A stretch of 64,000 nucleotides of DNA from Brevibacillus composti. Its GTDB lineage: Bacteria; Bacillota; Bacilli; Brevibacillales; Brevibacillaceae. The stretch spans positions 3,459,501-3,523,500 of the forward strand of contig NZ_CP066308.1 of the NCBI RefSeq assembly GCF_016406105.1. Reading direction: 5' to 3'. Positions 12,697 to 20,648 of this stretch are shown here, piece by piece. Both the position numbers and the translations under genes were made by a program. The notes under the pieces were generated by a model. The model made no database searches. It was not told the DNA's origin and saw nothing but the letters and a program-made list of their open reading frames with translations. How positions within the stretch are numbered: the stretch's first letter is position 1; every line of letters begins with the position of its first letter.

Positions 12697-13297
12697 TTAT
12701 GGATTCAATGTGTGGCTGGATGGCGCTTGTGCCGCTGGATTCGTTGGCGCATGCTCATGCTCCATGTGCATACTCGTCTCATCGGTACTGGTGACAGGAT
12801 GATCGGCATGGTCCGCATGGTCCGTGTTTTTCGCGGGGGAGCGATCGCCCGCATCCGATTGCTCATTATTTTTGTAGTGATTCATCCCGTTCGGATGATG
12901 GTGGCCGTGCCCGTACTTCTTGACGATCTCCTCAAACAAGCCTTCCGGAAACGCAGAGTAGGTCAAGCGGTCGGAGAGACCCGGCTCCGCCAATTTTTCG
13001 TAATCCGCTTGGGTCATCTTGGGCGCCGTACCTTTTACCTCGCTCACCCACTTGTCAAACTCTTCCGGCGTCTTCGCGATCACTTTAAAGTTCATGTGAG
13101 CGAAGCCTTTTCCCGTGAAGTTGGCGCCGGAGCCGAAATACTCGCCCGGCTCATCCGCTTGCATCCACAACCCCATCGCCATCCCCGGCATGGAGTAGGT
13201 CTGTCCCGCGAGCTGCGGCACCCAGAAGGAGTTCATCGGGGCGTCGGACGTAATTTCAAACTGCACAGGCACACCGGCTGGAATCGGAGCATAATTA
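12697..13297 (-). pseudogene. qoxA: qoxA 3' part (subunit II C-terminal domain), separated by IS
   Basis: Encodes the C-terminal cupredoxin-like domain of subunit II, from 'YAPIPAGVPVQFEITSDAP' to a long His/Glu/Asp-rich tail, with 'SFWVPQLAGQTYSM' and 'PGEYFGSGANFTGKGFAHM' as in QoxA. It lacks the CuA Cys pair, as quinol oxidases do. The upstream frame enters the IS and begins there only at a TTG without a good ribosome site. Joined to 14934-15394 with one copy of TAATTA it would restore a continuous QoxA. Confidence 0.9.
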
Positions 13298-13315
13298 GGG
13301 GCTGCTGAACGGTTT

Positions 13316-14812
13316 TCAAACTTCAAAAATGTTTCCAAAAGCAGGAATTCTATAGGAAAGAAGACGGTTTAACCAGGAGACAAAAAAATCCCGCAGCCTA
13401 CGCTCGAGGTTCATCACCAGGAGCTGAAGCGCGATGACGGTTTCACTTGTTTTCGCAAGGCATGCTCGAATACGGCCAAGCCCATACCTGCGCTTGCCCT
13501 CACCAAATTTGCCTTCTATGGCGTTGCGTTTTCGTGCATCTTGTCTTGCGACTCGCCGTTGTTCTGTCGCTTCTTCGCCTTGTACGGGACGGCCAAGCGC
13601 CGGACCGCTCAAACGAATGCCATGCGCTTTGCAAAATGCCCTGTTTTGCCGGGTGCGATAGATTTGATCGGCAAGTACCGCCTTCGGGTAACAACCAAAG
13701 CGTCTCTTGTATGCTTCTACAGATTCGATCAGCGTCACCCCTTCGTTGAAGCTGTCCCATGATAGACGCTCCAGAAAAGCATAACCGTTCACCATGCTGA
13801 CCGATACTTTGGCGCCAAACTCTACTCGCGCTTTCGCTTTGCCGCGTACGACCGGGCGGACGTGCGGTTGGTGGATGCTCACGATTCGATCTTCGATCTG
13901 ATGCGTTTTGCGTTCAAACATCATGCGTTGCTGTCGATACAGTTCCTGAATCACAAGCAAGTCGCGATATTGTTTCCGGCTCAAAAGTGTCAGCGGCTGC
14001 CGTGAGGCCATGTTGCGGATAATTTGAAGGTTACGTGCTACATACCGGAGTTGCTTGCCGATCGCTCGACGAATCACCTTGCCGTTTGCACGACGCTGTT
14101 TGGCCACGGCCAGGTACTCCTTTCGAGCTTTATCCCGATAAGTCCGTGGTTTGCGGGAACGACCAATCTGTGGAGCATGTAACGTATCGATGATCTCCTC
14201 CAGTTTCTCACGCGCCTCGTTCAGCAAGTTCAAATCGGTTGGGTACGCCACATCCGCCGGGGCACATGTGGCATCCAGCAACAAGACACCCTGGTTCGGA
14301 TCTTCCTCGGATGTTGAGTGACGCTTGGTCGTACGTTTACCTTTGGATTTTGTACCTGATTTTGGTTCATCGTCACGGTCGGAATCTGGAATTGATTTAG
14401 CGGCCTCAACCGCGATGATCTCGTTGATTTCACGGAGAACCGGTTCGCCTAAACGTTTGCGAAAATGCGTCATGAGCGACGGGTGGAACGGTGGATGATC
14501 CTGATAGCCTTCCAGCCCGATGAAGTATTGCAGATACGGGTTTTCGACAATCTGCTGGACCGTTTCCCGGTCCGACAGTTGCAAACGTTCCTGAATGATG
14601 AGTGCCCCGAGAGCGACACGGATGGAAACGGCCTTTTGTCCACGAAACGATATGCGGAAGGACTTGGCATACTTTTTCTCTGCATGTGCCCACGGTACCA
14701 ACCGAGCCAACTTGACCCAGCGATTTTCTTTACTCAACTTGCCGCCAAATGGCAAGAAAAAATCATCAGGGAGAAGCAGTTGATTTTCACGATGAGAGAG
14801 AAATTCGTACAT
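13316..14812 (-). CDS. IS5/IS1182-like DDE transposase in qoxA
   Basis: 498 aa, ATG with GGAG 9 nt upstream. The N-terminus 'DDFFLPFGGKLSKENRWVKL' and the DUF772 segment 'VALGALIIQERLQLSDRETV' are typical of a large transposase group with a long insertion between catalytic residues. Likely catalytic residues: Asp in 'LLDATCAPADVAYPTD', Asp in 'AVLADQIYRT', Glu in 'NAIEGKFGEGKRRYG'. Intact; presumably able to move. Runs in the same direction as qox. Confidence 0.88.
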   Translation of the reverse strand: MYEFLSHRENQLLLPDDFFLPFGGKLSKENRWVKLARLVPWAHAEKKYAKSFRISFRGQKAVSIRVALGALIIQERLQLSDRETVQQIVENPYLQYFIGLEGYQDHPPFHPSLMTHFRKRLGEPVLREINEIIAVEAAKSIPDSDRDDEPKSGTKSKGKRTTKRHSTSEEDPNQGVLLLDATCAPADVAYPTDLNLLNEAREKLEEIIDTLHAPQIGRSRKPRTYRDKARKEYLAVAKQRRANGKVIRRAIGKQLRYVARNLQIIRNMASRQPLTLLSRKQYRDLLVIQELYRQQRMMFERKTHQIEDRIVSIHQPHVRPVVRGKAKARVEFGAKVSVSMVNGYAFLERLSWDSFNEGVTLIESVEAYKRRFGCYPKAVLADQIYRTRQNRAFCKAHGIRLSGPALGRPVQGEEATEQRRVARQDARKRNAIEGKFGEGKRRYGLGRIRACLAKTSETVIALQLLVMNLERRLRDFFVSWLNRLLSYRIPAFGNIFEV

Positions 14813-14824
14813 TCAGATCCGCTC

Positions 14825-14870
14825 CATGTGCAAGGAATTTGAAGAAAAATCGTCGATTTCCTTGCACATG
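14825..14870. repeat. 13-bp perfect inverted repeat upstream of the IS transposase
   Basis: CATGTGCAAGGAA (14825-14837) and TTCCTTGCACATG (14858-14870) sit between the transposase ATG and the IS end. As RNA it would form a stem just before the ribosome site region, which in many IS elements shields the transposase from outside transcription. That role is inference. Confidence 0.7.
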
Positions 14871-14933
14871 ATTTCGATGAAAGCGAGGCAAAACCCTTGT
14901 GGTTACAGTATTTTTTATCTGTTCAGCAGCCCC

Positions 14934-15394
14934 TAATTAACGGTTGCGATGTTTTGTTCAGGGTAAGTGAACATCCATTTCCAGTCCAGCGATGTCACCT
15001 GAACGGTAATCGGCTTTACTTCTTGATTGGGCGGCTCCACCAGAGCGTAGGTGTCTCTGACCGTAAAGTAGCCGAGCAAGGCAATAATCACAACGGGAAT
15101 CCCCCACCAAATCACTTCCAGCTTCGTGCTATGCGACCAGTTGGGCTGGTAAGGGGCTTTGTTGTCCGGTTTGTCGCGGTAGCGGTACACGACGTATGCC
15201 GTGAAGGCCAGTACAGGGACCACGACAATCGCACACAAGATAACGGAAATGATGATGAGATTGTACTGCGTCTCCGCAACGGGCCCTTTCGGATTCAGCA
15301 CGATGTAGTCACTGCCGCAGCCCGATACGAGGACGCTGACGAGCATCGCCATGATCCAAAAACTCATTTGACGAAGTCTCTTCAGATTGTTCAT
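14934..15394 (-). pseudogene. qoxA: qoxA 5' part (subunit II N-terminal, lipoprotein signal and membrane helices)
   Basis: Start ATG 15394 with GGAAGGGG upstream. Encodes a lipoprotein signal with lipobox 'LVSGC', two membrane helices and the start of the periplasmic domain up to 'SLDWKWMFTYPEQNIATVN', where the IS creates a stop at once. The 'VTSLDWKWMF' segment is typical of quinol oxidase subunit II. Without the C-terminal domain the subunit cannot be complete, so the aa3 quinol oxidase is predicted inactive unless the IS excises precisely. Confidence 0.92.
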
Positions 15395-16077
15395 ATCTGA
15401 TACCCCTTCCTCTTTCATCACAGAAAAGGAACCAACCGTCCGTCCCCATTCGTTTAACTGAGTTGAACTTTTTTCGCATTACACATCGTAACAGAGGGAA
15501 AAATTTTCTGCAGGGCATTTTTTCAGCTTTCAAGATTCCGCCTCATTTTTGCTACAAACTGTTCAAGAAGGGTTCACGAGATGATCACGATATTGTTACG
15601 GATCCCCTGCATTGGTTCCGGCCTCCAGAAATGGTTGGGATGACAGGGGGGCATCCGTTTTGCCGGCAAGCATAAAAAAGCGAATGCTGCCATCAGGCAA
15701 ACATTCGCTTGGGTATTGTTCATTTTCCATTGGGTTCGGATCAAATGGGTTTGTATGCAGGTCGTTTCGTCCGCAGTCCGCGTCTACTTCCCAGTGTCAC
15801 CTCCCAAGTGACGAATTGCTACTCTTTTGTCATCTCTTCGGGTTATGAGCGGCGGAGGGGTTGTCGGGCAGGCAGCGCACTGGGCGACGGCCAGGGCGCT
15901 CTTCCTGCCGCCGCCCTGATTTTACATTTGCTATCGCCCCTGCTTTTGACTATAATGGAACTTATTTTTATCGGAGGGTTTGACCGAGAAGTCCGGTCGC
16001 CAGGGCTGCAAATCTGAAGAAATAATAGAGAAAAACGTCGCAGAAATAGATAGAAAGTGAAGGGAGAGAACCAGTAC
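15395..16077. other. Intergenic region between qoxA and the MFS gene
   Basis: No credible gene. It holds the qoxA promoter region (not resolved), a minus-direction hairpin AAGCGAATG/CATTCGCTT (15678-15686 and 15702-15710) with a T-run on the minus strand but no minus gene feeding it, and the plus-strand promoter listed next. A small GACCG/CGGTC stem lies near 15981-15998 in the MFS leader. Confidence 0.55.
15928..15956 (+). promoter_or_regulatory. Sigma-A-type promoter candidate for the MFS gene
   Basis: TTGCTA (15928-15933) and a perfect TATAAT (15951-15956) are separated by 17 nt, about 120 nt before the MFS start. Confidence 0.6.
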
Positions 16078-17384: not shown

Positions 17385-18225
17385 TCATTTTGCCCGGGGC
17401 AGCCTCACTTCAAAGGAAGTGCGGACATCGGGGATCGACTGTACATCTATCCGGCCGCGCTGCCTCTCCACCAACCGCTTGACGATCGCAAGACCCAAAC
17501 CGCTGCCGCTGGAGCTGCGGTTTCGGGAGGCTTCCCCCGTATACAGCCGGTCAAAGATATACGGCAGGTCAGCTTCCGCGATGCCTGGCCCGGCGTCCCA
17601 GATGACAGAGGGGCCGCGCGAGCCCCTCGACTCGTAATTCAGGACCAAAGAGACGTCCCTTGCCCACGGATGATCCCGCCAAAACGCCTCGGCCCCAAGC
17701 AAATTGAGTTCTTCTCCGTCTGAAAACAGAAAGATCAGGTCGTTTTTTGGCTTCGGCCCTGCCTGCGGCATACGCAAGGTCTCCAGCATGGCGGCGACAG
17801 CGACCCCATCGTCATTGGCCCCATAGCTCCCGGGTTCGGAGTCGTAATGCGCCGAGACCAGGATCGCCGAGGTGTGAGAGGTTCCCGCTACGCGGACGAG
17901 GATATTCCGGACGGTCGCGGCCGTCACGAGATTCCGGTTCCCATCTGTCTTGGACACTTCGGCCGTCTGCACCTGAGGCTCCAGCCCGAGCCGGTTTATC
18001 TCGGCGATGAGATAATCCCCCCCCCCGCTGATGACCTGCCGAGCCGGTCGGGTGCGGCTCCTTGGCAATCTCCTGTAAGTAGCGGAATGCCCGCTCTGCT
18101 GAAAATACGTCTGGACTTGCGTCAGCGGCTACCGGACGGGGAGGCTCCAACTCCCGGATGGAAAACCAGATCACTCCGATCAACAACAGCCAAAGACTCA
18201 TCTTTTTTACGCGATTGGCTCGCAT
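17385..18225 (-). pseudogene. M28 aminopeptidase fragment fused to a histidine-kinase tail, with a frameshift
   Basis: Start ATG 18225 (GAGGAGGAG upstream), with a membrane anchor and the M28 prodomain up to 'KEPHPTGSAGHQ'. The frame then breaks at a run of ten C (18017-18026; G10 on the coding strand); nine would keep it open. The second frame has M28 metal-site motifs 'SAHYDSEPGSYGANDDG' and 'SDGEELNLLGAEAF'. After 'NYESRGSRGPSVIW' (about 17600) the protein becomes the end of a histidine-kinase ATPase domain: 'DAGPGIAE', 'IFDRLY', 'SGSGLGLAIV'. So a deletion joined two unrelated genes in frame. Neither half has a complete active domain; treated as decayed. Confidence 0.85.
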
Positions 18226-18449
18226 ATGCTCCTCCTCTATCCACATCTGTCACGTGATGATTTGCATGATTGGATAGAATGGTAGCAGACGAACCTTACG
18301 CCAGTATTTACATGAATCTTAACGAATTCTTAACTCTCCCTGGTTGCATGAGGGAATAGGGACGGGATTTCCGGGAATGTGTTAGAATCGATCTCCAAAG
18401 GGCTTTACGTTATCTTTCTGAAACGTCTGTAAGGGGGAAGGGATCGCCT

Positions 18450-18614
18450 GTGTGGATTCTGCTGCTGCCGGTCCTTTTGCTGGCATTGGTCATACTCATC
18501 GGAATCATCGCTCTCGGCAGGTGGCTCCAGACCCGCTCCCGGCATGCACTCTACACCTGGGTGGTCTGTGCCGTAGTGGTGGCGCTTATGCTGATGATTG
18601 GATACATGTACTAA
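18450..18614 (+). CDS. Tiny two-helix membrane protein (54 aa)
   Basis: GTG start at 18450 with GGGGGAAGGG 8-17 nt upstream; stop TAA 18612-18614. The product has two hydrophobic helices ('LLLPVLLLALVILIGIIALG' and 'VVCAVVVALMLMIGYMY') joined by a basic loop 'RWLQTRSRH'. No family recognised. The ribosome site and clean hydrophobic pattern support a real gene, but it is short and the call stays moderate. It lies about 50 nt before an IS1182-type element that may have removed its neighbour. Confidence 0.55.
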   Translation: MWILLLPVLLLALVILIGIIALGRWLQTRSRHALYTWVVCAVVVALMLMIGYMY

Positions 18615-18662
18615 TGCCGTGACATGCCTCAACGCGCAAAAAAATGAACATCCACAGCACAA

Positions 18663-20575
18663 GGGGCTGTCCAGAAAGTCAGCATAAACTGACTTCTGGG
18701 CGCCCCGTTTTTGTTGAATGTAAAAAATAAGCACAAAAAAACCGTCTTTTCTTGTAAAATGGAAGTTACCACACTACCAATTCAAGAAAGGACGATTTTC
18801 TTGCGTAATCGGACGACTACTAATCATGATTATACCATGCAACTGGCTCTTCCTCTACAGGATGTGGAAGAAAAAATGATGCCCACGCGACATCTTGCCC
18901 CTACCTTCAAACCGTACGACAACAAGCAGGCTCAGATGATTCTGGATTTGGAGATGTATGTTCCCACCCATCATGTGGCTCGTGTCATTGATGAAATGAT
19001 CGAAGCCATTCCGGATCAGCAGTTGTTTGCTCATTACACGGGCGGAGGCCGCAGTTCCTACCATCCCAAAATGATGCTTAAGGTGATCCTTTACGGCTAC
19101 TCACAAAAGGTTTATTCCTGCCGCGGTATTGAAAAGCTGTTGCGTGAGAACCTCCCGGCCATGTGGCTGGCGGCGATGCAGCAGCCTGACTTCCGTACCT
19201 TGAACGATTTTCGCGGCGTGCGCATGAAAGCGTTCATGGACGAACTGTTTGAAACGATGATCCGCAAGCTCATCGCGGACAACTACATTTCGATGGAGCA
19301 GTACTTTTTGGATGGCACAAAGATTGAAGCCGATGCGAACAAGTACTCTTTTGTGTGGAAAAAATCCACGCTTCGCTTCGAGGAAAAGCTCAAGGAAAAG
19401 GTGCAGGCCACCCTTGCGCATATTCATACGCTCACGCAGCAAGAAGCTGGCGAATATGCAGCGGCAGACCCGGAAGAGCTCCCTGCCAAGCTCGAAGAAG
19501 CAGCGGCCGTGCTGGAGGAAAGAGTCGAAGGCTTAACCGAACAGCTCACGCAGACCAGCGGCAGCGAAGAGCGGAAAGCCTTGCGCAAAGCGCGCAGTGC
19601 CTTGAAGAGGCCGCTGAAACAGATTCGGAAGGATTTCCTTCCTCGCTTCGCCAAGTATGAGCAGCAGAAAGCCTGCTTTGGCGATCGCAACAGCTACTCG
19701 AAAACCGATCCGGACGCCACGTTTATGCGCATGAAGGAAGATCACATGAAAAATGGCCAACTGAAGCCAGGCTACAATGTGCAAATGGCCACGGAAAACC
19801 AGTTTGTTTTGTTCTACAGCATCCATCAGCGTCCTACGGATACACGATGCTTTATTCCGCATATGGAGCGATTGGCGGCGTCTTCGTTGCCGATGCCCAA
19901 AACCGTGATTGCCGACGCTGGCTATGGCAGCGAGGAAAACTACTTGTATGCGATGGGCGAAGAAAAACAGCCGCGATTTGAGTTTCTCATACCCTACGGC
20001 AACTATTTGAAGGAGAAAACCCGACGATACCAGAAGGACATCCGGCACGCTTCCAACTGGACGTATGAAGAGCAGGATGATCGCTTTGTTTGCCCGAATG
20101 GTCGATACGTTCGCTTTAAGAAATACCAGACGAAAAAAAACGCTTCTGGCCTGGAGCAAAGCTTCAAGATCTATGAATGTGAGGATTGTAGCGATTGCCC
20201 GCTCAAGCTCTCGTGCACCAAAGCAAAAGGGAATCGCCAGGTACACTGGAACACGATATGGGAAGAGTTAAAGGCAAAGGCCAAAAGAGCCCTTGAGGAT
20301 GACGAGAAGTCCGCGATCTATGCTCGGCGTAAAGTGGAGGTAGAAAGCGTGTTCGGTCACCTCAAGGGCAACCGGTCGTTCCGACGGTTCTCCTTACGGG
20401 GGCTGGACAAGGTTCACGTCGAGTTTGGGATTGTGGCATTGGCCCACAATCTATTGAAAGTGGCAGGCATCCGCCTCGCTACTTTCCTGCAAAAGCAGCC
20501 GCACAAAAAAGTTGGACGGAAAACATTACGTTTTTCCGCCCAACTTTTTATTTTGGGGACTTATTGGACAGCCCC
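18663..20575 (+). mobile_element. IS1182-family insertion sequence
   Basis: Left end begins GGGGCTGTCCAGAAAGTC (from 18663) and the right end is the inverse, ending GGACAGCCCC (20575). No target duplication is evident next to these ends. A strong imperfect hairpin, with arms GTTGGACGGAAAA and TTTTTCCGCCCAAC, lies just inside the right end (about 20509-20546). Confidence 0.85.
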
Positions 20576-20648
20576 TCTTCTTTCCTGCCAAACCGTACCG
20601 TTCACTTCTACAAAAACCGCCGATGCACTTTTTTCCCGTCATACGTAA
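18801..20648 (+). CDS. IS1182-family transposase, reading out of the element
   Basis: 615 aa from the TTG at 18801 (AAAGGA upstream); an ATG 12 codons later is the alternative. The IS1182 pattern is clear: '[20 protein letters not shown]', first Asp in '[15 protein letters not shown]', second Asp in '[13 protein letters not shown]', Glu in '[14 protein letters not shown]', plus a Cys cluster '[13 protein letters not shown]'. A Glu/Ala-rich coiled-coil insert lies near residues 205-270. There is no stop inside the element: the frame crosses the right end at 20575 and stops at 20648, in DNA antisense to the spoVR 3' end. Confidence 0.88.

What the first reader, a model, noticed from the sequence alone, without database searches (positions are those of the whole stretch)
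17385..18225. In-frame chimera of M28 peptidase and histidine-kinase ATPase end, with a G10 slippage tract
The reading frame passes from M28 zinc-site motifs into kinase G-box motifs at about 17600 without a stop, a deletion fusion. Upstream, ten G in the coding strand put the signal-anchor part out of frame, and nine would restore it. A homopolymer of this length is prone to slippage, so the N-terminus could switch on and off.
Basis: partly seen in the sequence, partly recalled or inferred. Interest (0 to 1): 0.65.

Follow-up and report, generated by a model that had tools for sequence, protein, structure and literature searches.

The report
Broken fused gene with G run
Parts of two unrelated genes, a peptidase and a signalling kinase, lie joined in one reading frame in a Brevibacillus-type bacterium, and a run of ten Gs also knocks the front out of frame, so this is most likely a decaying gene remnant rather than a working switch.

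Summary
On the minus strand one open frame runs from M28 aminopeptidase sequence into the C-terminal end of a sensor histidine kinase at about 17607-17598. A G10 run (18017-18026) puts the ATG-18225 N-terminus one base out of register with homologues. The comparison points to a pseudogene. The M28 part stops at position 112 of a 193-position model, before the last zinc histidine; the kinase part starts at position 40 of 111, without N-box or phosphoacceptor domain. Fifteen relatives carry the M28 in frames of 555-875 aa. Six M28 neighbourhoods hold no match to the two-component genes, and five kinase loci hold no M28. The lost M28 half has no match in the genome (no positive control), which argues against a simple assembly join. 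The tract is unusual: one of two G runs of nine or more in 4.47 Mb, and the other also splits its gene, a chemoreceptor. Slippage or a read error at G10 therefore stays open, but no whole domain is left here to switch. Low interest; the chemoreceptor tract is the better candidate.

The parts
18027..18225 (-). M28 peptidase N-terminus: ATG start, membrane/signal anchor, PHPTGS motif, in the frame upstream of the tract
   Evidence: aligns to the B. invocatus M28 N-terminus (L053)
18017..18026 (-). G10 tract (C10 on the + strand), one base longer than the register of homologues
17604..18014 (-). M28 peptidase core up to the junction: HYDS, NDDG, GEE and NYES motifs; last zinc His missing
17598..17607 (-). 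Fusion junction (GPS, VIW, DAGPGI)
17385..17603 (-). C-terminal part of a sensor histidine kinase ATPase domain (G1, F and G2 boxes, names recalled), stop codon included; N-box and HisKA missing
18662..20576 (+). IS1182-family element next door, one of nine near-identical copies in the genome (context only, not shown to have caused the deletion)

Best explanation
A gene remnant. A deletion (or other illegitimate join) fused the first ~207 codons of a membrane-anchored M28-family aminopeptidase gene of some 760 codons to the last ~73 codons of a sensor histidine kinase gene like those beside a response regulator, and happened to keep frame. Separately, codons that homologues mostly use for V-R became part of a G run that is one base too long, so translation from the native ATG goes out of frame. 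Shown: the two homologies, the junction in the assembly, the missing domain parts, the frame offset, and no match to the lost M28 half in the genome. Inferred: that a deletion made the junction, the order of events, and that the product is inert. This reading does not depend on whether the tenth G is real.
For: Domain truncations. In one search, five M28 homologues (of 13 loci given; 8 were dropped by a crude filter in my script) run on for hundreds of residues after GPS and hold a YH motif the chimera lacks; a recount found the motif in 11 of 12 M28 frames caught among 15 loci, and a kinase G2 box in none of the 12. That His aligns with YwaD 6hc6 (its zinc role is recalled). Full kinases carry HisKA and an essentially complete HATPase_c. 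16 of 398 class genomes including own have the M28 at E<=1e-30; the 15 others have open frames of 555-875 aa. Kinase-tail matches of 36 other genomes lie elsewhere than the M28 matches. No RR or HK match in 6 of 6 M28 neighbourhoods, no M28 in 5 of 5 kinase loci. The 551-aa M28 C-terminus of B. invocatus has 0 matches in the own genome. Recent insertion-sequence activity: nine near-identical IS1182 copies and a quinol oxidase subunit II gene split by an IS5 element.
Against: Both halves are still open and conserved (65% identity to B. invocatus over 137 residues). GC3 after the tract is 0.74 and 0.73, near that of three neighbouring genes (0.76-0.82); before the tract it is 0.62. So decay is recent or something still protects the frame. 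No relative shows the two genes adjacent, so the parental arrangement is not seen. One search had no positive control, as the tool itself warns.
Confidence: 0.85

Rival explanations
1. The G10 is a slippage tract (contingency locus) that switches the N-terminus on and off in the living population.
For: Two G runs of 9 or more in 4.47 Mb, both exactly ten, both inside genes, both with gene halves offset by one base: this one and a dCache-HAMP chemoreceptor split into 461-aa and 245-aa frames at C1:998207-998216. None of the four G8 runs splits its gene.
Against: No G run at this site in 14 of 14 M28 rows printed, 12 distinct genes. The downstream product lacks domain parts whatever the tract length. 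Two of three random lengths would be out of frame, so 2 of 2 is weak. Brevibacillus with homopolymeric phase variation gave 0 papers, Brevibacillus with phase variation 6, none on topic by title (listing).
Confidence: 0.08
2. The tenth G is a sequencing or polishing error, and the N-terminus is really in frame with the rest. (Compatible with the best explanation for the fusion.)
For: Homopolymers are a usual place for indel errors in long-read assemblies (established knowledge; one search lists PMC8011154 and PMC12007338, of which I saw only titles and abstract starts). Both G10 runs of this genome split their genes while the four G8 runs do not.
Against: Neither reads nor the sequencing method are known; the completeness figure of 99.92% says nothing about homopolymer accuracy. 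It would not restore the truncated domains.
Confidence: 0.3
3. The junction at 17600 is an assembly join error between two separate intact genes.
For: The two genes are not neighbours in the 11 loci of relatives tested.
Against: The missing M28 C-terminal half has 0 matches in the assembly (no positive control), and no close copy of the kinase tail is found (other matches at E<=1e-12: 45-55% identity; full-kinase query). A mis-join would normally leave the other halves elsewhere. The assembly has two contigs in all.
Confidence: 0.05
4. A functional new fusion protein using M28-like and ATPase-like parts for another purpose.
For: Frame kept across the junction and on to the kinase stop; no internal stops after the tract.
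Against: Both domains lack core parts, no second genome with it found in 398 of the class at the thresholds used, native start out of frame.
Confidence: 0.03

Closest known systems
Peptidase family M28 (Pfam PF04389), membrane-anchored form as in Brevibacillus invocatus (L054, 781-aa ORF)
   Same: N-terminal anchor, PHPTGS, HYDS, NDDG/NDNG, GEE and NYES motifs; 65% identity over 137 residues
   Different: About 70% of the protein, with the last zinc His, is missing; frame offset at the tract
Sensor histidine kinases beside a response regulator (L130, L131, L132, L133, L055; L130 and L055 also have ABC genes after them)
   Same: C-terminal ATPase motifs; up to 67% identity over 64 residues
   Different: Only the last ~73 residues; no HisKA, no N-box; no response regulator before it and no ABC gene directly after it
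Poly-G contingency genes of Campylobacter (recalled; papers seen in the listing only)
   Same: Run of about ten G inside a coding frame
   Different: Here in a truncated gene, not conserved in homologues, variability not shown

Membership tests
Functional M28 aminopeptidase | Complete set of zinc ligands (H, D, E, D/E, H; recalled) | tested here: not met
   Last His lies after the junction in homologues (11 of 12 frames; YwaD alignment) and is absent in the chimera
Functional M28 aminopeptidase | Full-length domain | tested here: not met
   Model positions 1-112 of 193
Functional histidine kinase | HisKA phosphoacceptor domain | tested here: not met
   No HisKA match in the chimera at E<=1; present in L130 and L055
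Functional histidine kinase | Complete HATPase_c with N-box | tested here: not met
   Model positions 40-110 of 111; 1-108 and 6-110 in L130 and L055
Phase-variable (contingency) locus | Homopolymer inside a coding frame whose length sets the frame | tested here: met
   G10, one base out of register with homologues
Phase-variable (contingency) locus | Length variation among cells or strains | not testable with these tools
   No reads and no second strain held
Phase-variable (contingency) locus | Intact gene product in at least one tract state | tested here: not met
   Both domains truncated whatever the tract length
Pseudogene by deletion fusion | Relatives have the two genes whole and separate | tested here: met
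Pseudogene by deletion fusion | Lost parts absent from the genome | tested here: inconclusive
   M28 C-terminus: 0 matches but no positive control. Kinase N-terminal half: many other kinases match, so its absence was not settled

The most novel reading that the evidence does not exclude
The genome carries a small set of G10 slippage switches, in a chemoreceptor and in this M28 remnant, the latter a former phase-variable surface peptidase that later lost its C-terminus.
Probability: 0.07. Interest if true: 0.5.

Novelty: new member of a known kind. Interest (0 to 1): 0.15.

Why it matters
Mostly as a caution: an in-frame two-domain architecture here is best read as a deletion product, not a new protein family. 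If both G10 tracts proved variable in reads, it would point to homopolymer phase variation in a genus for which two searches of the held library found no report on topic (the second judged by titles).

Tried and rejected
Looked for the parental arrangement: relatives with M28 and two-component genes adjacent; none in the 11 loci tested (L130 is only a 3,044-base contig). Among genomes with both kinds of match, one pair lay on one contig about 33 kb apart (G267); one other shared a contig much further apart (G172).

Checked a possible second fusion: locus L056 matched the query on both sides of the junction (residues 123-209), but it is an ordinary 495-aa kinase-like frame with HATPase_c only in the matched stretch. 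Of the 19 loci I examined L054, L055 and L056; by the matched ranges listed, L054 passes the junction by only about five residues, L071 and L072 start at it, and the rest lie on one side.

Looked for a source of the kinase tail in the own genome: four other matches at E<=1e-12, 45-55% identity, so no recent copy. Looked for the M28 C-terminus elsewhere: none (no positive control). Looked by eye for the TTAAGA repeats upstream of M28 or RR genes in L054, L127, L130 and L055: none evident. Looked for chemoreceptor orthologues to test the second G10: none at E<=1e-60 in the 40 genomes besides own, so its tract could not be compared.

Paper searches on Brevibacillus with homopolymeric phase variation, on poly-G with phase variation and chemoreceptors, and on the domain pair each gave 0 papers; Brevibacillus with phase variation gave 6, none on topic by title (listing only). 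No paper was opened. No structure prediction was run.

Rows dropped: 8 of 13 loci and 4 of 18 were not caught by my script's patterns; 3 of 15. Of eight G runs of ten or more seen in other genomes in the truncated listing, seven were fetched (G025 left out, near a contig end) and printed but not judged one by one.

Full report
What is there. The window lies in a 4.47 Mb, two-contig genome. The genus is that of Brevibacillus by inference: the same-genus relative holding this M28 gene, G016, has a contig of 210,018 bases, the length of the B. invocatus JCM 12215 contig that carries the same gene. On the minus strand an ATG at 18225, preceded by a GGAGG-type ribosome site, opens a signal-anchor and PHPTGS segment. 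At 18026-18017 stands a run of ten G. After it the M28 sequence continues in another frame and is open to a stop at 17387-17385.

The fusion. Pfam gives Peptidase_M28, residues 55-165, E 1e-27, and HATPase_c, residues 154-226, E 2.6e-16, in the same 227-aa frame. Separate searches place the end of M28 homology at about 17604 and the start of kinase homology at about 17603. The five full M28 homologues aligned (of 13 loci given; the rest missed by my filter) continue past this point with FET and later a YH motif; the chimera turns to DAGPGI.

Relatives. Of 398 class genomes, 16 including the own one have the M28 at E<=1e-30; the 15 others have open frames of 555-875 aa. In the 26-genome genus set only own and G016 have it at E<=1e-12. 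In 12 of those 15 loci my script caught the M28 frame; none of the 12 holds a kinase G2 box and 11 hold the YH..D motif. The kinase tail is nearest to the kinase of G104, 64% over 67 residues, whose 3,044-base contig also holds a response regulator and the start of an ABC ATPase-like frame (the ABC and regulator names are by eye). In six M28 neighbourhoods of 12-15 kb no match to that RR or HK was found at E<=1e-5, and in five kinase loci, all with an RR match, no M28. The genes are thus apart and not neighbours in the loci tested.

Why it looks broken. The M28 model is covered to 112 of 193, and the last zinc His, aligned to YwaD (6hc6) in the B. invocatus protein (zinc role recalled), lies beyond the join. 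The ATPase model is covered from 40 of 111, so the N-box is gone, and HisKA, present in two intact relatives, is absent. The 551-aa M28 C-terminus of B. invocatus has no match in the own genome (no positive control), so the lost half does not seem to be merely elsewhere in the assembly. The kinase N-terminal half cannot be excluded in the same way, because the genome has many kinases (31 matches).

The tract. Fourteen M28 rows (12 distinct genes: L053/L054 and L084/L127 are the same; 18 loci given) have no G run at this place, and all 14 keep the register that nine bases would give. The run of ten is therefore particular to this genome among those compared, and one base long. Genome-wide, six G runs of eight or more exist: four of exactly eight, none of nine, two of ten. 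Of the four G8 runs, three lie inside open frames whose Pfam domains are whole or nearly so (TerC; B12-binding/glyoxalase; NlpC/P60) and one lies just before NAD kinase, near its start. Both G10 runs split frames: this one, and a chemoreceptor whose dCache-HAMP part and MCP signalling part lie in two frames offset by one base that meet at the run. With two cases, and two of three random lengths being out of frame, this is suggestive only. Runs of ten or more also occur in other genomes of the genus (eight seen in the truncated listing), so such runs are not peculiar to this genome.

Reading. The simplest account is a recent pseudogene: a deletion fusion plus a homopolymer frameshift, in a genome with insertion sequences that look recent (nine near-identical IS1182 copies; quinol oxidase subunit II split by an IS5 element). 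GC3 of the parts after the tract (0.74, 0.73) is close to three neighbouring genes (0.76-0.82), that of the short part before it lower (0.62); the first fits recent decay.

Noticed in passing
G000:C1:998207-998216 (L135 2208-2217): The only other G run of nine or more in the genome, also ten, lies where a dCache-HAMP chemoreceptor gene passes from one frame to another. Better phase-variation candidate than the finding itself, or a read error.
   Followed up: partly
12697-15421: Quinol oxidase subunit II is split by an IS5-family element (transposase 13316-14812, inverted repeats at 13292 and 14939); subunit I downstream is an open 661-aa frame.
   Followed up: partly
18662-20576: IS1182-family element with inverted repeats, nine near-identical copies in the genome, about 30 bases from the end of the spoVR gene.
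   Followed up: partly
18317-18333: Two TTAAGA repeats eleven bases apart upstream of the M28 start, on the minus strand, resembling a response-regulator box (resemblance recalled).
   Followed up: partly
18403-18605: Short possible membrane-protein frame on the + strand between the M28 promoter region and the IS element, read by eye.
   Followed up: no
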